From Desulfogranum japonicum DSM 18378 (lineage in GTDB: Bacteria; Desulfobacterota; Desulfobulbia; Desulfobulbales; Desulfobulbaceae): a stretch of 64,000 nt of DNA. A model generated the notes under the pieces. It made no database searches, was not told the origin of the DNA, and worked only from the letters and a program-made list of their open reading frames with translations. The stretch lies in contig NZ_AUCV01000021.1 of assembly GCF_000429945.1 (NCBI RefSeq), positions 1-64,000 on the forward strand, written 5' to 3'. Each line of letters starts with the position of its first letter. Within the stretch, counting starts at the first letter, position 1. Positions 1 to 11,059 of this stretch are shown here, piece after piece. A program made the position numbers and the translations under genes.

Positions 1-223
1 CGATTCCCGTTTGGATTTCTCTTTCAGGCAAATAACCATTGCGTACCACTTGCCTATGCCCCCGGTCATTTTTCACATCTGCATACTGCTGCAGAAGATC
101 CTGAAGTTCAGCTTCGACAGCGTCAGCAATAAGTTGTCGAGCACCATGTCGCAACAACTCGGTCAGTGGATCCTCGGAAAACTCTCCAGGCTTTTTCAGG
201 CTAATAATTTTATTCTTGTTCAT
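1..223 (-). CDS. IS256-family (mutator-type) transposase, N-terminal part, runs off the window
   Basis: Minus-strand reading from an ATG at 223-221 gives about 74 residues, starting MNKNKIISLKKPGEF and continuing to the left edge. The stretches ELLRHGARQLIADAVEAEL and RNGYLPEREIQTGI are typical of the N-terminus of IS256-type DDE transposases, before the catalytic core, which lies outside the window. A ribosome binding site (AAAGGA) is just upstream. The element appears to sit inside a helicase gene whose 3' part starts near 300. The insertion sequence's right end is therefore between about 223 and 320, but it cannot be fixed without the other terminus. Confidence 0.9.
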   Translation of the reverse strand, partial: MNKNKIISLKKPGEFSEDPLTELLRHGARQLIADAVEAELQDLLQQYADVKNDRGHRQVVRNGYLPEREIQTGI

Positions 224-283
224 GACGTATCCTTTTTGTGTTGGAATTGTTCTTGGCGGATTGGTCCCAACAGGATACGTCAT
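222..283 (-). promoter_or_regulatory. Inverted repeat that could hide the transposase start site
   Basis: ATGACGTATCC at 222-232 and GGATACGTCAT at 273-283 are perfect 11-bp inverted repeats. In a transcript entering the insertion sequence from the helicase side, the downstream arm contains the transposase Shine-Dalgarno region and AUG, so folding would mask both. Hairpins that limit transposase translation from read-through RNA are known in other insertion sequences (IS10, IS50). The pairing is seen directly; its role is inference. Confidence 0.5.
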
Positions 284-299
284 TTATTTTTTATGTCTT

Positions 300-2378
300 C
301 CTCAAACACCACTTTCGATCATAACTCAGGCTGTGATCTTTGATGATGCACATGCAGCTGAGCATCTACTCCGAGACCATTTTACCACTCAAATATCCAG
401 AAACAGTTTCTCAGACCTTTATATAGAAATAGCCAATCTATTCTATGATTATCATATAAAAATTGGAAAAGAAGGCAGTTATGGAGAATTAAGTGACTCT
501 TCTTGCAAACATATTTTCTTAATACCTCCATTTGAAATCAGAAAGCAACAGTCTGAACTGACACGTATCTTAAATGAAGCAAGGCTATCAGATTCAATTG
601 AAACAAAATTCTCATGGGAGTTTATTCGTGATCGAATCGACTTGTGTTGCATACTAATTTCTGGCAACCAAATATCAATTACTCCAGCCTTTGTTCCAAC
701 AGCATCCTTGCCATACTTTAAAAGTGAAATTAGAAGGATTTATTTATCTGCAACTCTTTCAGCTCCAGATGCATTTGCAAGAACATTTGGCAAAGTTCCT
801 GATCAAGTCATAGCACCCTCAACAACTGCAGGAGAATGTGAAAGGCAGATCTTATTTCCTTCAAAAGCTGTAAGAGATGTAGAAGACATTGTTCTTACCA
901 AAACACTTATTAACCCTCGTAAAGCCCTAATTCTTGTACCATCTTACCAACGATCAAACAGCTGGTCTGATATTGCCATCCCTCCCGATACCAATAACGT
1001 CACAACTGCGGTAAACAGCTTTAAAGTTGACACAGGGAACTCAAAACTACTTCTTGCTGCTAGATATGATGGTGTTGATCTACCTGGAGATACTTGCCGC
1101 TTGATGGTGATTGACGACCTCCCAACAGGCATGGGGCTATTAGAAAGATTCATGTGGGAACACCTGGATTTATCTAATTCTATGAGGACTAGTATAGCAT
1201 CAAGAATAGTACAAAGTTTTGGTAGAATCTCACGAGGAATGAGTGACCATGGGGTTGTAATAATTACAGGTAAACGTCTTAGCGACTGGATATTAATCCC
1301 AAAGAACAAGGCCACCTTACCAGATTTCCTACAAAAACAGGTGGAGCTTGGTTATCAAGTTTCGCTTACAATTGAAAATGTTGATGAGTTTGATGATGCT
1401 ATCAATCAATGTCTGAACAGAGAGGAAGGTTGGCTGAGTGCATATAGTGAGTTCATGTCCAATGAGGAACCAATTGAACATGATATCGACACTGCAAGTC
1501 TTACGCTTTTAGCTGAGACAGAATCTAAATTCGGATATGAATTGTGGGATCGTCAGTATGAAAATGCGGCAAAAACCATTTTATCAACACTTGAAGTTGC
1601 CTTTGAGGTAAGTACAAATACAGGAGCATGGCACTGTTTCTGGGCAGGACTGGCTTTTGAGCTACTAGGAGACAAAGAAACTTCTACTGAATACTATACT
1701 AGAGCCCATGCTAGTCATAGAAATATACCTACATTTCCTTCAACAATAAAACAGGAAACAACTTCTGAAATACCTCCACAAGTTACAGAGGCAGTAAATC
1801 AAATTAAAGTCGATAAAAATGGTATAATCTCGTTACCCCGAACAATTCACCAGGATCTTACTCATCTCAATGGAAATGGTTCTTCCTTTCAAACAGAGGA
1901 GTCTATAAGAGCATTAGGCCAATATTTGGGTATGGAGTCAACAAGACCTGATAATGAATTTGGCACTGGTCCTGATGTACTCTGGACTTCCCCCGACTTA
2001 CCAGCGTTTTGTATCGAAGTCAAAACAGATAAAAAAGACTCATCAAATTATAAAAAGACTGAGGTCGGCCAGTTGAGTGATCATGTAGAATGGGTCAAAA
2101 ACAACACAGAAGCTGAGGAGATAATACCCGTATTTATTGGCCCTTTAAGCAGTGCAACAAGTAAAGCAAATCCACCAAATAATTTCTTTGTAATCGAATT
2201 AAAAGAACTAAAATTATTAGCTGATAAACTTGTTTCAACATTGACAGATGCTACCCAAGGCTCTGTTCCTGTTTCACTACTGTCCAACACATTTGAACTC
2301 ATGAAAACAAGAGGGCTTATTTGGCCAGAGCCTTTGGATCAACTATCAAAACAGAGATTGATTGATATCGAATCGTAA
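300..2378 (+). pseudogene. DDAH-box helicase with C-terminal PD-(D/E)XK nuclease domain, 5' end lost to an IS insertion
   Basis: The open frame reaches back to 216, but residues before about 300 come from the insertion sequence. Helicase motifs appear in order: motif II VIFDDAH (codons at 342-353), motif III YLSATL, and motif VI QSFGRISRG. Motif I (Walker A) and the N-terminal third are absent. The C-terminal part has a restriction-nuclease signature, GPDVLW followed by CIEVKT near 1970-2028, which fits a PD-(D/E)XK core. The frame is intact after the break, so the insertion may be recent. It lies upstream of a likely defence operon and may once have belonged to it. Without motif I the fragment should not hydrolyse ATP. 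The specific helicase family was not identified. Confidence 0.7.
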
Positions 2379-2872
2379 CACGCAACTACACTATAATTTC
2401 CAGTTACTGCAACATTAATCTTGGCTATCTCGGCTAGGCTAAAGAATCACATGACCTTGTTTATCAAAATATTTTAAACTCTAATTAGACCTGAGCACTA
2501 GGCGCCTCTGTGAAGGGGGGGCTTCTAAGCCAGCCCCATATAGGAACAATCTGACGCCATACTTACATCTCAATAAAGAAGTAATATACACTGTATTTTC
2601 AATATCTTAGATTGCTGAAAACAAAATTTAATTCATTTATATAAGAATCATTCCCTCTAAACCAGAAAATTCTGTACACACGCCATCGTGTCACATTGTG
2701 ACACTAAACCATTAATATATTGTACCTTTGGCCCAATGAACCTACTCTAATTCATGGTTTTGTGTTAAGATGGCTTGGACTAAGCTAATAAAATTAGCCC
2801 CATAAGGTATTATAAATATATAGAGAGAGTTGAATTTGACAATATAACTGCGCTCTTTTGGATGAACATACC
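2379..2872. other. Non-coding AT-rich stretch before the defence-like operon
   Basis: No gene is supported here. It holds a 17-bp perfect palindrome (2688-2704), a 15-bp palindrome (GCTAATAAAATTAGC, 2784-2798) and an AT-rich TATTATAAATATATA tract at 2808-2822 that could be a -10 region for the operon starting at 2873. TTGACA occurs at 2836-2841 but has no convincing -10 partner before the gene. Confidence 0.6.
2688..2704. promoter_or_regulatory. Perfect 17-bp palindrome, operator-like
   Basis: GTGTCACATTGTGACAC is fully symmetrical around a central T. It lies about 170 bp upstream of the acetyltransferase/ImmA/beta operon in an otherwise AT-rich region. The size and symmetry fit a dimeric regulator site. 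Which protein binds is unknown. Confidence 0.4.
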
Positions 2873-3559
2873 ATGACATTAGAGGAATTACGAAAACTGG
2901 TCAACGATGGTAAATTTCCAGTTGATAAGTCTATTAACAACATCACTTCAGGTCAGATCCATTCTCTAGATGGTGAAGAAAAAACTTACATAATCTCACA
3001 TGGCTGGGACATAATAACAGCTAATGAAATTGATGTACTATGGGGAGCCTATAACCTTGAATTGCTTGAAGCCATAGAGCAAATGCAAGTTGATGATGAG
3101 GAACGATATACAATAATAACTAATTTACACAAACAAGATTCTCATTGGGATTGGTTTGCAAAATCTTGTCGATACAGTACCGATGAGTACAACTGGTTTT
3201 TCCTTATAATTGATGATAAGCCACAGGCTGCATGTTTAACTTATCATCCTAAAGATAGTGCTCTCAGCCCAAATGATATTTTTTACATAGAGTACCTTGC
3301 AGTTGCCCCTTGGAATCGTAATACAGGCATCAAAGATCGCATATTTAAAGGATTAGGAAGCATACTCTTATCGAGTGTCTGTGATTTCGCTTGTGAAAAA
3401 CTAAATCTAACCAGACGGTTTTCCCTTCATTCTTTGCCGCAAGCAACAACATATTACGAGAACATTGGCATGATCAATGTTCCTGACAGGGATAAAGATC
3501 TACTCAAATATTATGAAATGCCTCCCTCAAAACAAGATCGTTTGGAGGAAAGCATATGA
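2873..3559 (+). CDS. GNAT-like N-acetyltransferase domain protein
   Basis: A protein of about 228 residues and the first gene of a three-gene operon. The segment FYIEYLAVAPWNRNTGIKDR resembles the beta4-alpha3 acetyl-CoA-binding part of GNAT enzymes. RFSLHSLPQATTYYENIGM fits the following beta5-alpha4 and the usual late Tyr-Glu-x-x-Gly-Met. The first ~90 residues are an acidic extension with no recognised domain. The ATG at 2873 is preferred because GGAT lies about 10 bases upstream; a TTG at 2858 is an in-frame alternative. The stop overlaps the next start (ATGA), so translation is probably coupled to the ImmA-like gene. The substrate is unknown. Confidence 0.65.
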   Translation: MTLEELRKLVNDGKFPVDKSINNITSGQIHSLDGEEKTYIISHGWDIITANEIDVLWGAYNLELLEAIEQMQVDDEERYTIITNLHKQDSHWDWFAKSCRYSTDEYNWFFLIIDDKPQAACLTYHPKDSALSPNDIFYIEYLAVAPWNRNTGIKDRIFKGLGSILLSSVCDFACEKLNLTRRFSLHSLPQATTYYENIGMINVPDRDKDLLKYYEMPPSKQDRLEESI

Positions 3560-4449
3560 GCCCAGCAAAAATCAAAGATACTGATTTACATGAAGACTTT
3601 GAAGTAAATCGTCCTGCAGGAGAGAATTTCGATCCCAAAACATATCTCGATAATTACAGACTTTATAAAAGTATTCTTGCAGAGGCTCCAGAAAATGAAT
3701 TAATCAAAAGGGGATGGATTGAAAAGGATAATATTAACTACTCTTTAATCTCTCTATTTAACAATATTCAGCAAAACAACCTTAAGGGTCTTTGCAGAAA
3801 AGCCAACACAAGCAACAATGCTTTATGCGCAATATGGCAAACAAGGATATTAACAAATGCACAACTAGCAATAACCACACAAGATATTTCACCTTTTGAT
3901 GGTATTAACATTCAATATCTCAGAGAAATTGTAAGGTTAAGCCCAAATCCTGAGGTAATTTTAGAGTTACCAAATATATTAGCTCAAATTGGAATTGTGC
4001 TTATCTATGAGAGATCTCTGCCTGCAATGAAATTGGATGGTGTTGTATTCAAAATTGCAAATAATCAACCTGTTATTGGACTAAGTTTTAGATATAAAAG
4101 GCTAGACTACTTCTGGTTCACATTACTACATGAACTTGCCCACATTGCACTACACTTTGGCCACCTAAACACTCCTATATTTGATGACATGGATGAGGAA
4201 AATACAGACATCCTGGAACTACAAGCCAATAAGGTCGCCAAAGATGCCATAGCTGATAAATGGAAATGGAGGAATTGCAAGGCAAAATACACCAATGACG
4301 AGCAGGACATTATTGAATTTGCACAAGAATGCGAAGTTCACCCTGCTTTGATAGCTGGCCTACTCCAGCGAGAAAAGAATGCCTACCAATTATTCAGGAA
4401 AATAACAGACCAAATTGACGTTAGGGAGATGGTGTTTGGTGATGAATAA
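3556..4449 (+). CDS. ImmA/IrrE-type zinc metallopeptidase
   Basis: A 297-residue protein with the zinc motif HELAH (His192, Glu193, His196) in TLLHELAHIALH and a third ligand candidate, Glu221, in ELQANKVA, the classic ImmA/IrrE layout. The known relatives ImmA and IrrE cleave repressors of mobile elements or of DNA-damage genes. Unlike many relatives, no N-terminal HTH_XRE domain is evident; the first 110 residues are of unknown fold. It overlaps the preceding gene by 4 bp and the following beta-type gene by 8 bp, so the three form a tight operon. The natural substrate may be a regulator of this locus or of a phage; that part is inference. Confidence 0.85.
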   Translation: MSPAKIKDTDLHEDFEVNRPAGENFDPKTYLDNYRLYKSILAEAPENELIKRGWIEKDNINYSLISLFNNIQQNNLKGLCRKANTSNNALCAIWQTRILTNAQLAITTQDISPFDGINIQYLREIVRLSPNPEVILELPNILAQIGIVLIYERSLPAMKLDGVVFKIANNQPVIGLSFRYKRLDYFWFTLLHELAHIALHFGHLNTPIFDDMDEENTDILELQANKVAKDAIADKWKWRNCKAKYTNDEQDIIEFAQECEVHPALIAGLLQREKNAYQLFRKITDQIDVREMVFGDE

Positions 4450-5509
4450 TTACATTCCGTTTTTAAAAACGAAAACAGGTGAGTTTGGTGCAATTAAAAC
4501 ACTTGAAATGACTATAAAGGAAGAGTTGACTCCATTCCTTGAGTTACAGTTCAACAAGGAAGCTGATTCTGATTGGCTTAAAGATAAAATGCCAAAAATA
4601 AAAAGAAAGATTGAGATCAACCTAAATAAGACGCCTTTCTTTTATTTTGACAATTACAATATTGATTCCGATATGGTGATTGATGGCATCAATAACTACC
4701 AATATATACTCGAAACCTTAAAAGATCTACCAGTCATCCCTGTTGTTTCCACAGATAGACACCCAGATCACAACCAAAGTGTTTTCAACTTAAAATCAAG
4801 TGGAGACATCGAATCAGATGTTCTTGCGATACGATTGACAAGTGAGCACTTTCAAAATTACCATTTAACCCAACTTGACCTTATCAATGAGTTAGGAACC
4901 GTAATTCCACAATTTGATCAGATTGACCTGATATTAGATTGTCGGGTTTGTCTAAATACAGATACTGCAGAGGCTGCAAACAACATTATCGATTTTACGG
5001 TTAACTTTGCAAAGGATTACAATGTTAGACGTGTAATAGTTGCAGGATCTTCAATCCCTCCATCTATTGCTGACCTTTTGCCACCAATTTCTACTACCAC
5101 TGTAGAGAGACAAGAGCTTGCAATTTATAGAAATGTGCAACTACTAAGCAGTGATTTTGATTTATATTTAGGAGACTATGGTAGCGTATCACCAGATTTC
5201 AGTGAGATAGATATCATACCTGAGGCAATGAGGAATGTAACCGCACCAAAGATCATCTATGCATATGATGATAACCATTTCATCCTAAGAGGTGGGGCTC
5301 TCGCAACCCACCCAAGAGGCGATGATCAATACTATGACTTATCTGGATACCTCGAAGCTCAACCTTTTTTTCGAGGACCAGGATACAGTGAAGGTGGCAA
5401 ATTTTTCAAAGAGAAAAGCAAATCTCTAGGTCCAAAGGTTACACCAGCAAGTATTGTAAAACCCACACTTAATTCACATATCACCTACATGATGAAAGGA
5501 TGGTCATAA
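4442..5509 (+). CDS. Beta family (sce7725-type) protein
   Basis: A 355-residue protein starting MNNYIPFLKTKTGEFGAI, the characteristic opening of the phage T4 beta-protein/sce7725 family, which begins Tyr-x-Pro-x-Leu-Lys. The body has several beta-strand-alpha-helix units (LDLILDCRVCL, VRRVIVAGSS) compatible with a TIM-barrel-like fold. The ATG at 4442 is chosen because the protein alignment begins there and it overlaps the ImmA stop by 8 bp; an upstream GTG/TTG would run into the ImmA frame. No molecular activity is established for the family. The gene ends 6 bp inside the convergent sce7726-type gene. Confidence 0.8.
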   Translation: MNNYIPFLKTKTGEFGAIKTLEMTIKEELTPFLELQFNKEADSDWLKDKMPKIKRKIEINLNKTPFFYFDNYNIDSDMVIDGINNYQYILETLKDLPVIPVVSTDRHPDHNQSVFNLKSSGDIESDVLAIRLTSEHFQNYHLTQLDLINELGTVIPQFDQIDLILDCRVCLNTDTAEAANNIIDFTVNFAKDYNVRRVIVAGSSIPPSIADLLPPISTTTVERQELAIYRNVQLLSSDFDLYLGDYGSVSPDFSEIDIIPEAMRNVTAPKIIYAYDDNHFILRGGALATHPRGDDQYYDLSGYLEAQPFFRGPGYSEGGKFFKEKSKSLGPKVTPASIVKPTLNSHITYMMKGWS

Positions 5510-6064
5510 GCAGCGCTTTTGACACCTCTCCGTCAATAAAGAACTAATCTCTCTACTTATTTGAACCTTTCTTTTAGCTTGCGAGATTTGAGTAGAAAGA
5601 GAGTCTCTCGTCCAAATATGTTTTTTCCTTTGTTGAGGTGCAACTAGATTGAGCATCTCACTCTTCCAAAGAGTTAACAGAGCTTTCTTTTTGTCAAAGT
5701 TACTATTTGGAACCGATTTTCGAACGTAAGCAATACGAACGGTACCATCAATCTCTTGCGCCTCCATAATTCCCCAAAAATGTGGCAAAATGGATAGAGC
5801 TTTTTCAACATGCTTAGAGGTGGTAACTAAAGATATCTTCCAGAATACCTGATTGAAAAACTCTCCCTGCTCTACAGCCCTTTCAATTTTATCTCCATCA
5901 CCTTTTATCTCGTAACAATGTGCATTGTCATAAATTGCGACTACATCAGCGATGGCATTTCCATTATGAACCCTTAATTCCTCAACAATGGCTTTTGGCT
6001 TTTTGGCCTGACTACCTAGTTTCTGAATTAGAGACTTACGAATATCTGAATCGTTCAACTGCAT
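5504..6064 (-). CDS. sce7726 family protein (putative nuclease-like)
   Basis: A 186-residue protein. The run IVEELRVHNGNAIADVVAIY, then YEIKGDGDKIERAVEQ, then an alternating strand/helix part ending LPHFWGIMEA, matches the sce7726 family. The D-V plus E-I-K arrangement (Asp in IADVV, Glu and Lys in YEIKGD) is what a PD-(D/E)XK nuclease core looks like, so DNA cleavage is a reasonable inference. It is convergent with the beta gene and the two stops overlap by 6 bp. The family names sce7725 and sce7726 reflect their pairing as neighbours in Sorangium, so their proximity here supports a joint role. Confidence 0.8.
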   Translation of the reverse strand: MQLNDSDIRKSLIQKLGSQAKKPKAIVEELRVHNGNAIADVVAIYDNAHCYEIKGDGDKIERAVEQGEFFNQVFWKISLVTTSKHVEKALSILPHFWGIMEAQEIDGTVRIAYVRKSVPNSNFDKKKALLTLWKSEMLNLVAPQQRKKHIWTRDSLSTQISQAKRKVQISREISSLLTERCQKRCL

Positions 6065-6608
6065 ATCTAAATCAATCTCTTTATTATCAATAAGTTACGA
6101 TATTTTATACCATTACCTTATCCTACCATAAAGGGTAAACACTTCATAGCTACAATGATTCCAATGTGAAAATTATTTTGTTGCTTTTGCTTGCAGCAAT
6201 GACCTTTCTATCTGAAGTAATCACCAAATTATTCCCCCAAAAATGCAACCTACATCAATCCAACACTATCAGTGTTAAGTCCTTTAAAAATGGAAAGTAA
6301 TTTAAAGTAGCGAGATAGGAAAAAGTTCCCATAAAGTGGGAATAGGGAAGAAGGGGGTTTGGAATAAATACAATCATCACACACTATTTGTTTTATTCCC
6401 CAAAAAATTGAAAAGATAACGAGTAATTACAAGCTGCAACAACAAGTATATTCTCTGGGCATCTGCCATGGTGACTCACTAGCAGGCACCTGATAATGCT
6501 CAAAAATTTGACAATTTCTGCATTATGATAGTTATTTTAATCCTTCCTCCTCCCCCCCTTCTCCCCACTCTATGGGAACTTTTTAATAAACAATGTTAAA
6601 CTAGGTAA
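6065..6608. other. Non-coding 544-bp gap between sce7726-type and polymerase-like genes
   Basis: No gene is supported. The stretch contains a pair of long imperfect inverted repeats (6319-6357 and 6552-6584, annotated separately), G-rich and C-rich tracts and AT-rich spacer. It lies between the two minus-strand genes, downstream of the polymerase-like gene and upstream of the sce7726-type gene start. It is long enough to hold the sce7726 promoter and possibly a cis-acting replication site. Confidence 0.5.
6319..6584. repeat. Long imperfect inverted repeat pair flanking ~190 bp
   Basis: The left arm (6319-6357) reads GAAAAAGTTCCCATAAAGTG and continues into a GGGAAGAAGGGGG tract. The reverse complement of the right arm (6552-6584) reads AAAAAGTTCCCATAGAGTGG and continues into a G-rich tract. 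The left arm alone also folds (TTCCCA 6326-6331 with TGGGAA 6337-6342). This is purine-rich on one strand at one end and pyrimidine-rich at the other, next to a polymerase-like gene, and could be an element origin or a structured RNA. Confidence 0.5.
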
Positions 6609-8129
6609 TTAGAACTCAACATCCACTTCTATTGGAAAACCAAACATTTTTTCATACTCTGTTATCATGACATGCTTCAAAAAAGAACGATCTGATCGTT
6701 TAACCACAAAACTGTCATGAAGTGGGAGACAGGGTTTCCCTTCCTTTGCGAATATGAGTAATATCTTTTCTGCCAGTTGAGAGTCAAGAAACTGCAGCTT
6801 TCTGCCAATCTGATTAAACATTGTGCCTGCAAGTTTTGGATGATGGGAAAGAACTCGATCAATGGCATCATCAAATTCGAAATAACCCAATCCATCTACC
6901 ATATATATGTCATTGCTATTATATGATTTATATGACTTAACAGTCCAGACCTCTGAAGGAAGTTTTAGTTCCCCTTTAATAATGTCTCCTGCAATTGAGT
7001 TTCTCAACTCTCCACGTGACGCCACGTTAAAAGTGCGCAGTAACGTCTGTTTGGCAAATTTCCGACAGTTATCATCATTACTGAAACCAGGGATATAATA
7101 CAACTCACCTACAGGAGTCGGTATTTTTTCAAAGATATTGTAAGCCATGGCAACATGATAACTTGAATAGTCTATTTCGGTTGCAGGCTCACCATCAATC
7201 CTTATTCTGCTTCTGAAAGGGATAATTCTATTGGGTAAATTCTGCCAGAATCCACCATAGAATCTGCCACCACTTTCAAAATCATCCACAAACTTTCTAC
7301 ATAAAAACGTATCCGTTATATCAAGAAATGGCGCCTTCCTTCTTAGAAAATCAATCGTCCCTTTTGGAACCGAATCTGGAAGGTACAAACTGTATGAATG
7401 TTGTCGCAAAACTTCATTAATCAGCTTCACATTTGTACGTGCACTTTTAGTATAATTATCATCTACATATTCAATTTTCTTCTTTTTGCCCGTAATTTCA
7501 TCATTGGTTCGCAGAATTATACTTTCTGATGCAGGGTATATAGTTTTTATATCCACACCCTCAAATAATGAAGATAACTTTCTGGTCGCTCTCATCCTTG
7601 AAATATTGCCATTACCACGCCCTCTACCCCATTCACCAAGCTCCATGTCGATATATCCGTTTTCATGCAAATAATCCACAGTGGTAATTGTATAATTATA
7701 TGAGTAATTTGTAACAGTTTCATACCTACTTCTCTTGCACTCACTTCCTCTAGGTATTGAATACGCAGTTTTCTTTCTCCAGTACCCAACCCATTTTGCG
7801 CTTGTGAGAGATTTCAGATAAAGAAATGTTACAATTCCCTCGATATGTTTTCTCTTTTCCTCAATCTTACTGTTACCCTTGAATGGTATTAGCTCCAGAA
7901 GTTCATCAATTTTTTTACCAAAGAAAGGATCTTCACACTTCCAAGAGTAATTAAGGAAATCTGTCTCCACCCTGTCGCTCAAATGAGCGTTAGGCACATA
8001 ATCAGGATTGTTCTCCCACCAAATCAGTGATTTTAGAGCACGAAGACCATCTGGAGTTTTTGGGTCAAGCTGCCTGAAATTCATTGATTCCAAACGACAA
8101 CCACTGCTTTTCTTTATCAGCTCTCCCAT
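6609..8129 (-). CDS. Family A polymerase/T7 RNA polymerase-like palm protein of the integrated element
   Basis: A 506-residue protein of no family I can name with certainty. The C-terminal 220 residues carry what look like the three polymerase palm/fingers motifs of the Pol A superfamily in the right order and spacing. Motif A is EIDYSSYH with Asp320; a fingers-helix motif B is CRKFAKQTLLRTFN (Arg356, Lys360); motif C is LPLHDSFVV with Asp472. HDSF is the form seen in T7-type RNA polymerases, while HDE is usual in Pol I. GGRFYGGFWQNLPN at about 287-300 precedes motif A. No 3'-5' exonuclease domain is visible. The N-terminal half is unassigned. It overlaps the AlpA-type gene by 13 bp. A role in replicating or priming the excised element is inference. 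Confidence 0.6.
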   Translation of the reverse strand: MGELIKKSSGCRLESMNFRQLDPKTPDGLRALKSLIWWENNPDYVPNAHLSDRVETDFLNYSWKCEDPFFGKKIDELLELIPFKGNSKIEEKRKHIEGIVTFLYLKSLTSAKWVGYWRKKTAYSIPRGSECKRSRYETVTNYSYNYTITTVDYLHENGYIDMELGEWGRGRGNGNISRMRATRKLSSLFEGVDIKTIYPASESIILRTNDEITGKKKKIEYVDDNYTKSARTNVKLINEVLRQHSYSLYLPDSVPKGTIDFLRRKAPFLDITDTFLCRKFVDDFESGGRFYGGFWQNLPNRIIPFRSRIRIDGEPATEIDYSSYHVAMAYNIFEKIPTPVGELYYIPGFSNDDNCRKFAKQTLLRTFNVASRGELRNSIAGDIIKGELKLPSEVWTVKSYKSYNSNDIYMVDGLGYFEFDDAIDRVLSHHPKLAGTMFNQIGRKLQFLDSQLAEKILLIFAKEGKPCLPLHDSFVVKRSDRSFLKHVMITEYEKMFGFPIEVDVEF

Positions 8130-8416
8130 GCCTTCCTCCCTTCCCCTCTGGTAAGGATAGTTTTGCCATCCTGCTCATAAATAGTATGACTAAAAAGCCT
8201 TCCTTCTACAAAGCCACTGTTTTCAATACAACTCAGTAGCCATGCGTCAACTTCATGCTCTAGCCACCCCACAGCTCTCTGGCCAAGTTTAATTTGTCTA
8301 GGGAAGGTCCCTTCTTTAATGCGCTCATAAATAGTAGATTTGCCCAAACCAACTCTTTCTAGAACCTGATCCATCCGAAGTATTCTTAAATTATATCCTC
8401 CTTTTTTCGTTTGCAT
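8117..8416 (-). CDS. AlpA-family DNA-binding regulator/excisionase-like protein
   Basis: A 99-residue protein with the AlpA/MerR-like winged-helix pattern: ILRMDQVLERVGLGKSTIYE is the helix-turn-helix and FPRQIKLGQRAVGWLEHEVD is the wing and following helix. AlpA relatives in P4-like and CP4-57 elements activate or direct integrase-mediated excision. About 35 residues follow the usual end of the domain. A strong ribosome binding site (AAGGAGGAAAAC) precedes the ATG. Its 3' end overlaps the polymerase-like gene, so the two are probably co-transcribed and expression of the polymerase-like protein may be tied to excision. Confidence 0.88.
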   Translation of the reverse strand: MQTKKGGYNLRILRMDQVLERVGLGKSTIYERIKEGTFPRQIKLGQRAVGWLEHEVDAWLLSCIENSGFVEGRLFSHTIYEQDGKTILTRGEGRKAWES

Positions 8417-8527
8417 TGTTTTCCTCCTTTCTGATTGATTGCCAATTACATTCTAATCACCTCCATTTTTTGAAAGTTTTGTAACTGAGTATGGGGGGAA
8501 CTATACCCCATGCATTTACAGGAAACG

Positions 8528-8552
8528 TTGCAATTGCAATTGCAAATTGCAT
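8528..8552. promoter_or_regulatory. Tandem TTGCAA palindromes upstream of the AlpA-type gene
   Basis: In the 219-bp gap between the AlpA-type gene and the unknown gene there is a run of overlapping TTGCAA/GCAATTGC palindromes, about four units in 25 bp. A second inverted repeat (ATGGGG with CCCCAT near 8491-8512) lies between it and the AlpA start. Both could be regulator sites for the alpA-polymerase transcript. Confidence 0.4.
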
Positions 8553-8635
8553 TAATGGATTTTTCTGGAAGGGAAAGGACTAAGGAGAAGGGAAAGCACT
8601 CTATTGGTAGGAAGGTCTAGAGCGGAACTTGAGTC

Positions 8636-9343
8636 TTACAAGTGATATTTTTTGAGAATTTCTGATTCATTTTCTTTGGGGTCATGTGTCCTTTTCAATC
8701 TTTTTCTTGCGGCAGCAATCACATGATTCAAGTTCGATACGGATATCCCATTTAAGTCACCATAAATATCATTTATAAATTGGCGCAATGAAGCATCTGT
8801 TTTAAATTCTTTATCTCTAAACTCGCCCATCAGGCATCTGTCTAAGGTTGCAATAACATATTCATATGTTTCTGGAGTGAATGAACCTTCCTCAACAGCT
8901 ATTTCTTTAGTTTGTTTTACTGTAGCACTCATTAGGCCGAACTCTATCTTATCTTCTTCAGATAAAGGTTGGCTGATTAATTTTTGAAATGCTCTATGCT
9001 TCTCAGCTAAAGCCTCTTCTTCAATTTCAATGGTCTGATCATAATCCAACTCTTCTTTTTCAACTTTAACTTCGTTTTTTTCACCGCTGTCACCAGCTGC
9101 CCACTTTTCAAAGGATTCAATATGAATGTACAAATTATCCTCTGCAAATAAGATTTCTACAGCGTAATTAAGTTTGTGCTCTTTCATACGGTATTCCACA
9201 TGACCATCTTTGCACGCCTGAAAAAGCTCTGACTTCAAGAGTTCCAAACATGACCCTTCATCACCACACCAGTACCTTACCAATGCATCTGCAGGAACGT
9301 ATTTTGGCTTTATCCAAGAACCATTCTTCTTATGTTGAAACAT
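8636..9343 (-). CDS. Hypothetical protein of the integrated element
   Basis: A 235-residue soluble protein with no family I recognise. It opens WIKPKYVPADALVRYWCGDE, then has an alternating helix/strand region to about residue 85. A very acidic linker (about 86-125, many Glu) follows, then a mostly helical C-terminal domain (LRQFINDIYGDLNGISVSNL, then a basic AARKRLKRTHD end). Its ATG lies 2 bp after the integrase stop. GGAG in the last integrase codons serves as its ribosome binding site, so it is translationally coupled to the integrase. The basic tail could bind DNA; that is a guess. Confidence 0.75.
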   Translation of the reverse strand: MFQHKKNGSWIKPKYVPADALVRYWCGDEGSCLELLKSELFQACKDGHVEYRMKEHKLNYAVEILFAEDNLYIHIESFEKWAAGDSGEKNEVKVEKEELDYDQTIEIEEEALAEKHRAFQKLISQPLSEEDKIEFGLMSATVKQTKEIAVEEGSFTPETYEYVIATLDRCLMGEFRDKEFKTDASLRQFINDIYGDLNGISVSNLNHVIAAARKRLKRTHDPKENESEILKKYHL

Positions 9344-9345
9344 AT

Positions 9346-10536
9346 TTACTTCTCCACATCCTCTCTTAATTCATCAAGGTAATCTGCCCACCACTGCATC
9401 ATATCTTTCCTCTTTTCGAGATGTTGTGCATAATTGTATGCCGCCTTTACACTATTTCCCTCAGCGTGAGCAAGTTGAAGCTCGATAGCGTCTCCAAGCC
9501 ATGCATTTTCATACAAAAGGGTTGAAGCCATCCCTCGAAAGCCATGTCCTGTAATCTGGTCCTTGCTATATCCCATGCCTCGCAGAGCTGCATTAACTGT
9601 ATTATTACTCATCGGTTTACTTCTGCTTCTCAGGCTGGGAAAAACATATTTCCCTTCACCTGTGAGTGGTCTAATCTCTTCTATTATTTCAAGAGATTGA
9701 CGAGACAATGGTACAATATGCGGTCGATTCATTTTCATCTTAGACTCAGGAATTTTCCATATACCGCCTTCAACATCAATCTCTTCCCACTCCGCATGCC
9801 TTAACTCGCCAGGTCGAACAAATGTAAGAGGAGCTAGTTTCAAAGCACATCTTGTAACAAGATTGCCATGATATCCGTCAATTGCCCTCATTAAGCAACC
9901 AATCTTTTTGGGATCGGTGATTGTCGCCATGGCTTTCGGTTTGACTGGTGTCAGAGCACCTTTCAAATCTGCACTCGGATCACGATCTGCACGACCTGTT
10001 GCAATGGCATACCTAAATACTTGTCCACAAATCTGCTTAACACGATGGGCAGTTTCAATTGCACCACCATTTTCAATTCTCCTCAATACCTTCAATAGCA
10101 TGGGAGCATCAACTGAAGCTATTTCTTTGTTCCCTATCCATGGGAGGACCTTGTTTTCCAACCTGCCTTTTACTGTTTCCGCATGCTTTGCAGTCCAAGT
10201 TGGTACTTGTTTCGAATACCACTCCCTTGCAACCACCTCAAACATATTTTCTGTTAATGCTTTTTGCTTACGCTTCTCTTGATTCTTATATTCGTTTGGA
10301 TCAATACCCTTCGCCAATATTCGCTTGTAATCAGTATGCCACTCCCTCACCTCTTTAAGTGTCACATCTGGATAGACACCATAGGCAAAGGTCTTTCGTT
10401 TTCCGCCAAACCTATAATCCCATCGGAAATACTTCCCTGTTTTTGTGACAAGCAGATACAAGCCACGACCATCTGTCAATTTGTACTGCTTCTGTTGTGG
10501 TTTGGCATTGCGAATTGCGGTATCTGTGAGCTTCAT
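9346..10536 (-). CDS. P4-type tyrosine recombinase (integrase)
   Basis: A 396-residue protein. The N-terminal arm-binding domain (DUF4102 type) is MKLTDTAIRNAKPQQKQYKL and onward. The core-binding domain spans about 100-180 and the catalytic domain follows. Catalytic residues visible are Arg in TFVRPGELR, His-x-x-Arg in GHGFRGMAS, His in LAHAEGN, and the nucleophile Tyr in AAYNYAQHLEKR. AGGAGA precedes the ATG. The gene is read away from ssrA, and its start is only 164 bp from the ssrA 3' end, the usual arrangement for elements that integrate into tmRNA genes. It is translationally coupled to the next gene. Confidence 0.95.
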   Translation of the reverse strand: MKLTDTAIRNAKPQQKQYKLTDGRGLYLLVTKTGKYFRWDYRFGGKRKTFAYGVYPDVTLKEVREWHTDYKRILAKGIDPNEYKNQEKRKQKALTENMFEVVAREWYSKQVPTWTAKHAETVKGRLENKVLPWIGNKEIASVDAPMLLKVLRRIENGGAIETAHRVKQICGQVFRYAIATGRADRDPSADLKGALTPVKPKAMATITDPKKIGCLMRAIDGYHGNLVTRCALKLAPLTFVRPGELRHAEWEEIDVEGGIWKIPESKMKMNRPHIVPLSRQSLEIIEEIRPLTGEGKYVFPSLRSRSKPMSNNTVNAALRGMGYSKDQITGHGFRGMASTLLYENAWLGDAIELQLAHAEGNSVKAAYNYAQHLEKRKDMMQWWADYLDELREDVEK

Positions 10537-10599
10537 GACGGTATCTCCTATTGCCTATTTATCAAATACCGTCCAATATACCGCCTTAAATGACGGTAT
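10518..10599. promoter_or_regulatory. Cluster of ATACCG(TC) repeats over the integrase start
   Basis: Five copies of the same word occur in 82 bp: GCGGTATC (10518-10525), GACGGTAT (10537-10544, touching the integrase ATG), ATACCGTC (10566-10573), ATACCG (10578-10583) and GACGGTAT (10592-10599). Orientations alternate. They fit arm-type integrase or excisionase sites, or an autoregulatory operator for int. Confidence 0.55.
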
Positions 10600-10631
10600 G
10601 TCAACAGATCAAACTGGACACTACTGGAAAC

Positions 10632-10699: not shown

Positions 10700-10725
10700 T
10701 GGTGGAGGCGGCGGGAGTCGAACCC
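10700..10725. other. Probable attachment site core at the ssrA 3' end
   Basis: The last bases of tmRNA (3' end including encoded CCA at 10702-10700, within GGAGTCGAACCCGCG read from the plus strand) are the usual crossover core for elements of this type. The matching copy at the other end of the element is not found in this window, so the far junction must lie to the left. The exact core cannot be defined. Confidence 0.45.
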
Positions 10726-11059
10726 GCGTCCGGAAATTCTCCCCTTATGTCTCTACATGCTTAGTTCCGGGATTAAGTCTCGCATCCGGGTCTCACCCGG
10801 AACCGGGATAATCGGATGCCAGCCTGAAAAGATCTTATCCAGTGCGCCTCAGGCGTGCGCAGCGGACCAGCCTATAGAGTCGACGCTCCGATTCCAGCCC
10901 CATAGACAAGGGCTGGTGGAACGGCACAGCAGATTAAGCTGCCAGTGCGTAATTATAATCGTCTGCGATTATATTTAAGTTCCGTCATTTTTACGAGCTG
11001 ACAGAAACTCGACATGCAACACTAAGCTTCAATATCCCCGTCGAATCCGTTTCGCCCCC
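10700..11059 (-). ncRNA. ssrA: Transfer-messenger RNA (tmRNA)
   Basis: About 360 nt. The 5' end GGGGGCGAAACGGATTCGAC (from 11059) and the 3' end TTCGACTCCCGCCGCCTCCACCA-type acceptor (to 10700) form the alanine-like tRNA domain. The reading frame at about 10967-10935 encodes the tag ADDYNYALAA followed by TAA. tmRNA frees stalled ribosomes and marks the truncated product for proteolysis, with SmpB as its partner. The smpB gene ends only 31 bp upstream on the same strand. The gene remains complete although an integrated element abuts it. Confidence 0.97.

What the first reader, a model, noticed from the sequence alone, without database searches (positions are those of the whole stretch)
6609..8129. 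Protein with Pol A/T7 RNA polymerase-like palm motifs in an AlpA/integrase element
Motif A (EIDYSSYH, Asp320), a fingers-like R-x3-K (RKFAK) and motif C (LHDSFVV, Asp472) occur in order with about 150 residues between the two Asp residues, as in the Pol A superfamily palm. The HDSF form resembles single-subunit RNA polymerases. No proofreading domain is present. It is co-transcribed with an AlpA-type regulator, suggesting it acts when the element excises.
Basis: partly seen in the sequence, partly recalled or inferred. Interest (0 to 1): 0.6.

Follow-up and report, generated by a model that had tools for sequence, protein, structure and literature searches.

The report
Divergent polymerase on a mobile island
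A mobile DNA island inserted at a tmRNA gene and carrying anti-phage defence genes also carries a shrunken, unusual relative of DNA polymerase I; the same kind of enzyme was recently seen in phages without a known job, and here it looks like the enzyme that copies or primes mobile islands of this type.

Summary
ORF 6609-8129(-) (506 aa) has a family-A palm: Arg289, Asp320, Arg356, Lys360 and Asp472 are kept in all or all but one of the 61-63 readable rows of a 64-row family alignment; for the AlphaFold model, all 50 Foldseek rows shown are family-A DNA polymerases or single-subunit RNA polymerases; a Pol I profile aligns motif for motif. The family is already named: PHROG 4756 = 'divPolA2' (Virol J 2024), a phage protein of unknown role. 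Added here: many copies lie in bacterial integrative islands (a tyrosine integrase in the fetched stretch of 42 of 57 loci; about 0.04 expected per 20 kb), the N-terminal domain looks like a winged helix, and a probable TV-Pol, a mobile-element polymerase, matches by profile. In the window the gene overlaps alpA by 13 nt in an int-235aa-alpA-pol unit beside tmRNA, with PD-Lambda-2 and PDC-S28 defence cargo. Best explanation: the island's own primase-polymerase for copying the excised form (0.5); an RNA polymerase or repair enzyme stays open. Activity, substrate (dNTP or NTP) and excision were not tested.

The parts
6609..8129 (-). polymerase gene, 506 aa (PHROG 4756 / divPolA2 family)
7539..7937 (-). 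N-terminal domain (about residues 65-197), winged-helix fold predicted
   Evidence: model of residues 62-262; Foldseek and VIA rows shown are mostly winged-helix proteins, best Z 7.9; no Foldseek E under 0.07, and Z is below the tool's own line of 8
6612..7304 (-). palm and fingers (about residues 276-506)
   Evidence: AlphaFold model, Foldseek, VIA
7263..7265 (-). Arg289 of the GR motif
   Evidence: 63/63 readable rows
7170..7172 (-). Asp320, motif A
   Evidence: 63/63 readable rows
7050..7064 (-). Arg356-x3-Lys360, motif B (fingers)
   Evidence: 61/62 and 62/62 readable rows
6714..6716 (-). Asp472, motif C
   Evidence: 61/61 readable rows
8117..8416 (-). AlpA-type regulator, overlaps the polymerase gene by 13 nt
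   Evidence: PF05930 E 3e-20
8636..9343 (-). 235 aa protein of unknown function, conserved with alpA and pol in Desulfogranum mediterraneum
9346..10536 (-). tyrosine integrase
   Evidence: PF00589, PF13356, PF22022
10700..11059 (-). tmRNA gene, presumed integration target (no second copy of its last 23 bases found in the genome)
6320..6584 (.). inverted repeat (arms 6320-6368, 6536-6584) after the pol gene; the lower arm holds a terminator-like hairpin with T run (6342-6326, -); arms largely identical in D. mediterraneum
10575..10604 (-). sigma-70-like promoter match, 11 of 12, upstream of the integrase gene (consensus match only; the region has fewer such matches than shuffles)
3556..5509 (+). 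cargo: PD-Lambda-2 B (3556-4449) and C (4415-5509) defence genes
   Evidence: PADLOC E 6.9e-56 and 2e-38
5504..6064 (-). cargo: sce7726 family protein
   Evidence: NCBIfam E 1e-41
216..2378 (+). cargo: PDC-S28 candidate-defence helicase; a PDC-S28 protein is also cargo in D. mediterraneum
   Evidence: PADLOC E 4.4e-209

Best explanation
The gene encodes a minimal family-A polymerase (palm and fingers, no exonuclease found) with a predicted winged-helix DNA-binding domain in front, and serves as the replication enzyme of an integrative island: after AlpA switches the unit on and the integrase excises the island, the protein binds island DNA through the winged helix and primes and/or extends DNA so that the circle is copied before it reintegrates or moves. 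Shown: family, motifs, palm fold, gene order, frequent company of integrases and tRNA/tmRNA sites. Inferred: catalytic activity, DNA rather than RNA product, priming, origin binding, action in the excised state.
For: Palm fold and the catalytic motifs. Tyrosine integrase (150 aa or more, iterated local profiles) in the fetched stretch, about 10 kb each side where the contig allowed, of 42 of 57 family loci, 37 of 49 in bacterial genomes; background by PF00589 at E 1e-5, a different detector: 108 matches in about 60 Mb of 12 of these genomes, about 0.04 per 20 kb. An integrase within 300 bp of a tRNA or tmRNA in 23 of 57. A resolvase-type cluster near 14 of 57 (6 of the 14 scanned, 6 of 6 hit Resolvase). 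In 2 of 57 loci (L092, L183) the order is pol, small gene or gap, D5 helicase, integrase on one strand (the pol ORF of L092 is short, 286 aa), the order described for CcPol, MP, helicase and recombinase, where CcPol-MP makes primers de novo (PMC10061031, parts 1-2 of 5 read). Profile match to the probable TV-Pol of cyanophage LMM01 plus two plasmid relatives, hhalign E 4.7e-5; with the LMM01 protein alone E 2.5e-4 against a best of 0.012 in 120 control proteins. The block 235aa-alpA-pol with its terminator-like arms is shared at 81% DNA identity with an island at tRNA-Leu in D. mediterraneum, while the integrase gene matches in DNA only over its last 56 bases and most cargo differs. The host has its own Pol I elsewhere.
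Against: No helicase or other replication gene is seen between integrase and cargo in the window; the genome's one D5_N match is on another contig and only 2 of 57 loci have one beside pol. Barbaviruses that carry the family also carry a regular PolB (PMC11348598, section 13). 15 of 57 loci show no integrase in the fetched stretch (some are cut by contig ends). Integrase company is also expected for any island cargo, including defence genes, and many neighbours are restriction or defence genes. The TV-Pol link rests on one protein: the Polaromonas and Calothrix relatives alone score at control level (E 0.059, 0.38), and neither the LMM01 nor the Polaromonas protein has the Arg of RxxxK (letters). 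Neither excision nor replication of the island was tested; the left end lies off the contig.
Confidence: 0.5

Rival explanations
1. It is an element- or phage-specific single-subunit RNA polymerase: the winged helix recognises the element's promoters and the palm makes RNA (transcripts or RNA primers).
For: HDSF motif C; Foldseek rows include mitochondrial and T7 RNA polymerases with E near the DNA polymerases; Virol J 2024 names an RNA polymerase as a possible role of divPolA2; the stretch from LQxxDS to motif C aligns to the phage KASIA RNA polymerase, E 0.009; atypical sugar pocket (His325, Asn368).
Against: The KASIA match is about control level (best control 0.012); VIA puts DNA polymerases first and shows one RNA polymerase in 50 rows; in KASIA the gene stands about 2 kb from a separate RNA polymerase gene, so it would be redundant there.
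Confidence: 0.17
2. It is a repair or gap-filling polymerase carried as cargo, helping island or phage DNA to survive damage or restriction.
For: Repair is one of the roles proposed for divPolA2, and some phages have two or three paralogues; restriction-modification and defence neighbours.
Against: In the window it sits in the integration/regulation unit, overlapping alpA, not among the cargo; the unit stays together while most cargo changes.
Confidence: 0.15
3. It is part of an anti-phage defence system whose polymerase makes DNA or RNA when a phage infects.
For: Neighbouring genes are defence genes in the window (PD-Lambda-2, PDC-S28) and elsewhere (nSTAND3/Mrr, type I and III restriction).
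Against: No PADLOC match for the protein itself; members live in phages such as ICP1; among genes within 6 kb no defence cluster recurs in more than 6 of 57 loci, integrase does in 42 (clusters other than integrase and resolvase were only partly identified).
Confidence: 0.08
4. Catalytically dead remnant or a palm used only for binding.
For: Some family loci are split (L180) or hold in-frame stops (G875, G415, G878), though all but one of those stops are TAG and G875 has a pyrrolysyl-tRNA synthetase, so recoding is possible.
Against: Catalytic Asp columns have no other residue in readable rows, dN/dS about 0.14 for the window copy.
Confidence: 0.05

Closest known systems
divPolA2 (phage family-A variant; Virol J 2024, PMC11348598) = PHROG 4756
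   Same: The paper's representative AUR84708 hits PHROG 4756 at 1.8e-91 and the window protein at 1e-52; palm with motifs A-C, no exonuclease, own N-terminal domain, a second polymerase beside a regular one.
   Different: Window copy is in a bacterial integrative island, in a unit with integrase and AlpA; the paper's section treats phages and found no similarity for the N-terminal domain, which here looks like a winged helix; AUR84708 has FDE in motif C and Tyr where the window protein has HDS and Asn368 (letters).
TV-Pol family (transposon-virus polymerases; Biol Direct 2008, PMC2579912)
   Same: As described there: minimal family-A core, conserved Arg before motif A, RxxxK, two Asp; integrase or resolvase neighbours, RM-rich hot spots. 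His five residues after motif A Asp in the LMM01 and Polaromonas proteins too (Calothrix has Gln). A DUF3102 gene lies directly before family member L091 and next but one before the Polaromonas gene.
   Different: No D5 helicase fusion or neighbour in the window; weak sequence relation; winged-helix N-terminus rather than the described all-helical one; the LMM01 and Polaromonas proteins lack the Arg of RxxxK.
CcPol-MP primase of SCC elements (eLife 2020; Front Mol Biosci 2023, PMC10061031)
   Same: Island-borne family-A enzyme; some PolA-SSB islands sit in ssrA; gene order pol-middle-helicase-recombinase in 2 of 57 family loci.
   Different: CcPol is close to Pol I (paper's words); no helicase beside the window gene, MP not identified; tyrosine recombinase, where most listed there are large serine ones.
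T7-like / mitochondrial single-subunit RNA polymerases
   Same: Palm and fingers topology, HDS at motif C.
   Different: 506 residues against 800 or more; no recognisable promoter-binding domain; Asn at the place of the O-helix Tyr (T7 residue recalled).

Membership tests
Family-A polymerase superfamily (palm) | palm fold shared with Pol I | tested here: met
   Foldseek prob 1.00, E 1.3e-4; VIA Z 13.2, rmsd 4.4 over 252 residues
Family-A polymerase superfamily (palm) | motif A Asp, motif C Asp, RxxxK, GR Arg | tested here: met
Family-A polymerase superfamily (palm) | Pfam DNA_pol_A (PF00476) match | tested here: not met
   none at E 1 for P0001 nor at 0.1 for 15 members: a divergent branch, not classical Pol I
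divPolA2 / PHROG 4756 | profile match together with the published representative | tested here: met
   1e-52 and 1.8e-91 to the same profile
divPolA2 / PHROG 4756 | no thumb homologous to other DNAPs | tested here: inconclusive
   most palm matches start at residue about 196-219; helix 225-242 may serve as thumb
TV-Pol | hairpin Arg, palm Asp pair, RxxxK | tested here: met
TV-Pol | conserved fingers Asp | tested here: inconclusive
   most members have DPY or DLY before RxxxK, the window protein has GELY; identity with the TV-Pol Asp not established
TV-Pol | sequence profile relation | tested here: inconclusive
   hhalign E 4.7e-5; hmmsearch --max with the 64-row profile puts MAP_030 first, E 0.0016, with the smaller profile second, E 0.25; the genome search found nothing at E 10 in the LMM01 record; that MAP_030 is the paper's TV-Pol is inferred, and it lacks the Arg of RxxxK
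TV-Pol | fused or adjacent D5 helicase | tested here: not met
   not in the window or on its contig; 2 of 57 family loci. The 2008 paper has TV-Pols without it, so not strictly defining
CcPol-MP (PolA-SSB primase) | adjacent OB-fold MP subunit | not tested
   neighbour folds were not predicted; neighbours are AlpA and a 235 aa protein
CcPol-MP (PolA-SSB primase) | de novo primer synthesis | not testable with these tools
   needs purified protein
Single-subunit RNA polymerase | RNA synthesis from a promoter | not testable with these tools
   needs assay
Single-subunit RNA polymerase | closest fold or profile is an RNAP | tested here: inconclusive
   both enzyme kinds match

The most novel reading that the evidence does not exclude
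A broad, unstudied class of island replicases: a single chain that couples a winged-helix DNA reader to a stripped-down family-A palm with an unusual sugar pocket (His where Pol I has the steric-gate Glu, Asn where Pol I and T7 RNAP have the O-helix Tyr), able to start synthesis on island DNA without a dedicated helicase or SSB subunit, and from which phages such as ICP1 took copies, perhaps more than once.
Probability: 0.22. Interest if true: 0.75.

Novelty: new member of a known kind. Interest (0 to 1): 0.48.

Why it matters
divPolA2 was published as a phage enzyme without a role. The islands supply what phages do not: a recurring genetic setting (integrase, tRNA or tmRNA site, in some AlpA) that makes a role in copying excised islands testable, and a likely DNA-reading domain. 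If true, integrative defence islands in Thermodesulfobacteriota and Pseudomonadota carry their own primase-polymerase, as SCC-like elements do in Bacillota, and the minimal family-A core with a changed sugar pocket becomes an accessible case of how DNA and RNA polymerases of this fold diverged.

Tried and rejected
Chance motifs: rejected. DUF5126 in Pfam (E 0.097): chance. PDB by sequence: nothing for the single protein; for the profile only two SlyA sequences, E 0.22 and 0.29, over the N-terminal part, which fits a winged helix. Viral-contig scans with P0001, A3 and L002: no relatives; with A2: 6 loci. Pattern scan for GGRFYGxxxQ: 46 loci, 0 of 46 in the family. att site: only one copy of the tmRNA's last 23 bases within 3 mismatches in the genome; the window starts at the contig's first base, so the far end was not found. 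I first read the inverted repeat 6320-6584 as a possible origin; its arms look like two opposed terminators (the scan lists the lower one), so I do not claim an origin. D5 helicase as a general partner: rejected, 2 of 57. A 250 aa zinc-finger-like protein adjoins pol in 9 loci but not in the window; Pfam has nothing convincing for the 6 of 9 scanned (weak DUF7792 E 0.009). Pol I or RNAP as nearest kin: not decided; single-sequence hhalign values for Pol I (0.0049-0.052, 3 sequences) and RNAP (0.009) lie in or near the range of 120 controls (best 0.012). Tree: many open forks; the window's place beyond D. mediterraneum is shared with one row (97/87) on long branches, and a meeting of long branches is flagged. 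Rows dropped: L006 and L007 of the 17 were left out of A1; family ORFs under 250 aa and identical rows were left out; 61 of 64 went into the tree; L027:7810- was left out of A7. Literature: the paper search; 'divPolA2' stands in 2 papers only; none of these listings showed a description of this family in integrative islands, in open-licence papers only; listed papers other than the three read were not opened.

Full report
OBSERVATION. The 506 aa ORF at 6609-8129(-) is real. It has no Pfam, PADLOC or NCBIfam match above chance but matches PHROG 4756, 'unknown function', at E 1e-52 over residues 82-503. tblastn finds relatives in 101 of 50,697 phage records (Vibrio 83, Aeromonas 11, Shewanella 5, Pseudoalteromonas 2; many are near-copies of ICP1), among them ORF100 of ICP1, and in 2 of 72,556 plasmids. 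Profile searches of sampled genomes find the family in 8 of 395 genomes of the host's phylum (PHROG profile, host counted), 22 of 257 of its order (host counted) and 24 of 398 of the phylum of Amylibacter (Amylibacter counted); searches used alignment A1.

MOTIFS. In a 64-row alignment (window included, rows chosen by family profiles) the column of Arg289 is R in 63 of 63 readable rows, Asp320 D in 63/63, Arg356 R in 61/62, Lys360 K in 62/62, His471 H in 59/61, Asp472 D in 61/61. Two columns are unusual: five residues after Asp320 there is His in 39 of 64 rows (Pol I has the steric-gate Glu there, T7 RNAP a Gly; recalled), and twelve residues after Arg356 there is Asn in 41 of 63 readable rows (Tyr in Pol I, seen in the alignment; Tyr in T7 RNAP, recalled). 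hhalign of the family against seven Pol I sequences from the host and relatives gives E 1.1e-4, probability 57%, and pairs GR with GR, motif A, RxxxK and motif C in register. With single sequences the Pol I signal is at or near control level. dN/dS against the D. mediterraneum copy is 0.070/0.497.

STRUCTURE. AlphaFold on P0001 with nine relatives: mean pLDDT 69, pTM 0.59; blocks of residues 271-506 mostly 74-95, lower (58-71) at 301-310, 341-350, 391-420 and 501-506. Foldseek against the PDB: 18 matches at E 0.001 or better; these and all 50 rows shown (of 325 at E 10) are family-A DNA polymerases or single-subunit RNA polymerases. VIA: best Z 13.2, rmsd 4.4, 252 aligned (apicoplast Pol, model 217-506); one RNA polymerase among the 50 rows, yeast mitochondrial, Z 12.0, rmsd 10.2, 349 aligned. 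Among predicted viral proteins rank 9 is a 'DNA polymerase' of Rheinheimera phage Barba31A, a barbavirus by its name, the group in which divPolA2 was first found. Residues 62-262 folded alone (mean pLDDT 68) match mainly winged-helix proteins: MarR, GntR and PadR regulators, TFIIE, and ribosomal chains that I take for eS10 and eS19 (recalled); best VIA Z 7.9, rmsd 2.6, 97 aligned; best Foldseek E 0.07. This is consistent but below the tool's own line of Z 8, so the winged helix is likely, not proven.

IDENTITY. 'DNA polymerase swapping in Caudoviricetes bacteriophages' (Virol J 2024, PMC11348598; passages and section 13 read) described divPolA2: palm, no homologous thumb, no exonuclease, an N-terminal domain without known relatives, role possibly repair or RNA polymerase. 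Its modelled representative AUR84708 matches PHROG 4756 at 1.8e-91 and P0001 pairwise at 4e-7. So the family is known; the window protein is a member outside phages. TV-Pol (Biol Direct 2008, PMC2579912; parts 1 and 2 of 3 and passages read) is the older family of minimal family-A polymerases of mobile elements. I compared ours with the protein of cyanophage LMM01 that sits beside transposase genes (MAP_030; that it is the paper's LMM01 TV-Pol is my inference) and two plasmid relatives: hhalign E 4.7e-5, probability 68%, over GR, motif A and motif B; with MAP_030 alone E 2.5e-4, better than all 120 control proteins (best 0.012), but with the Polaromonas and Calothrix proteins alone 0.059 and 0.38, control level. 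MAP_030 and the Polaromonas protein have His five residues after motif A Asp (Calothrix Gln) and lack the Arg of RxxxK. hmmsearch with the 64-row profile puts MAP_030 first in the phage at E 0.0016, with the smaller profile second at 0.25; the genome search look at the record found nothing at E 10. I regard ours as TV-Pol-like, perhaps a sister branch, not a proven member.

SETTING. The island abuts the 3' end of tmRNA (10700-11059). Order on the minus strand: integrase (9346-10536), 235 aa protein (8636-9343), AlpA (8117-8416), polymerase (6609-8129; alpA and pol overlap by 13 nt), then an inverted repeat whose lower arm holds a terminator-like hairpin (6342-6326). Window 6318-9401 is 81% identical to Desulfogranum mediterraneum DSM 13871 (L024), where the same three genes and the repeat stand in an island at tRNA-Leu; its integrase is a homologous protein (phmmer E 4e-88) but matches in DNA only over the last 56 bases of the gene, and the next genes are a type I restriction-like set by eye; a PDC-S28 helicase is cargo in both. 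The repeat arms are largely identical in the two, the stretch between them much less so. Cargo in the window: PD-Lambda-2 B and C, sce7726, PDC-S28.

SETTING OF THE FAMILY. I read 57 loci: the window, 48 other loci in bacterial genomes, 2 plasmids, 6 IMG/VR contigs; a few genomes give two loci, and stretches differ in length (about 6-21 kb). A tyrosine integrase of 150 aa or more lies in the fetched stretch in 42 of 57 (37 of 49 in bacterial genomes), and an integrase lies within 300 bp of a tRNA or tmRNA in 23 of 57, tmRNA in 4 of them. Background by Pfam, a different detector: 108 integrase matches in 12 of these genomes, about 60 Mb, so about 0.04 per 20 kb; clustering of mobile genes makes the true background higher. 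Further: AlpA-like genes in 6 of 57 (L188's is about 3 kb away on the other strand; two of the six were not checked by Pfam), a D5 helicase beside pol in 2 of 57, a resolvase-type cluster in 14 of 57, a 250 aa protein on the same strand in 9 of 57, 8 of them overlapping pol or within 161 bp. In the palm tree of 61 rows the six phage rows stand in four places among bacterial rows, but two of these hang from an unresolved fork and only the phage pairs themselves have starred support. This suggests, without proof, that phages and islands exchanged the gene, perhaps more than once.

MECHANISM. Most likely the protein is the island's primase-polymerase (0.5). Shown: the enzyme's fold and intact catalytic motifs, its frequent association with integration modules, its place in the regulatory unit rather than in the cargo. 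Inferred from kin: priming (CcPol-MP makes primers de novo; Front Mol Biosci 2023, PMC10061031, parts 1 and 2 of 5 read; the eLife 2020 paper seen only as a search listing). The RNA polymerase and repair readings stay open because fold matches do not separate them and the sugar pocket is atypical for both.

VERDICT. A sound observation, a largely correct motif reading, an over-specific RNA polymerase hint. The protein is a new member of a family named in 2024; the integrative-island setting, the likely winged helix and the tentative TV-Pol link add to what I read of that paper.

Noticed in passing
L140/L153 (G875:C1:2414-3904), L146 (G878), L152 (G415): Three genomes of the host's family hold family genes with in-frame stops that are TAG (6 TAG and one TAA over profile 13-435 in G875, 3 TAG in G878, 1 TAG in G415). 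G875 has a pyrrolysyl-tRNA synthetase match over the curated cut-off (E 2e-92), the other two do not: in G875 the TAGs may be read as pyrrolysine rather than mark decay.
   Followed up: partly
window 3556-5509: PD-Lambda-2 B and C defence genes (IrrE-like peptidase and Beta protein) as island cargo, preceded by a GNAT-like gene at 2858-3559.
   Followed up: partly
window 216-2378 and L024 15081-16337: PDC-S28 candidate-defence helicase is cargo in both islands that share the polymerase unit; the window copy lacks about 150 N-terminal profile positions near the contig end.
   Followed up: partly
window 6320-6368 and 6536-6584; L024: Two opposed terminator-like arms, largely identical between two species, flank 167 nt of less conserved DNA; purpose of the spacer unknown.
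   Followed up: partly
L023, L089, L090, L157, L159, L167, L169, L170, L175: About 250 aa protein with a Cys/His zinc-finger-like N-terminus (GC-x-R...C-x3-H...RHGS) on the same strand as the polymerase gene, in 8 of 9 overlapping it or within 161 bp; a candidate partner protein, no convincing Pfam match in the 6 scanned.
   Followed up: partly
L027 3087-4397 and 7816-8835: Two different polymerase paralogues in one 20 kb IMG/VR contig, with a C5 cytosine methylase between them.
   Followed up: no
L091 8457-9377 and L206 640-1299: A DUF3102 gene lies directly before a divPolA2 gene in one genome and next but one before a TV-Pol-like gene on a Polaromonas plasmid, a hint that the two polymerases replace each other.
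   Followed up: partly
L020 4698-6047: In Shewanella phage KASIA the family gene lies about 2 kb from the phage RNA polymerase gene, with an AAA ATPase between.
   Followed up: no
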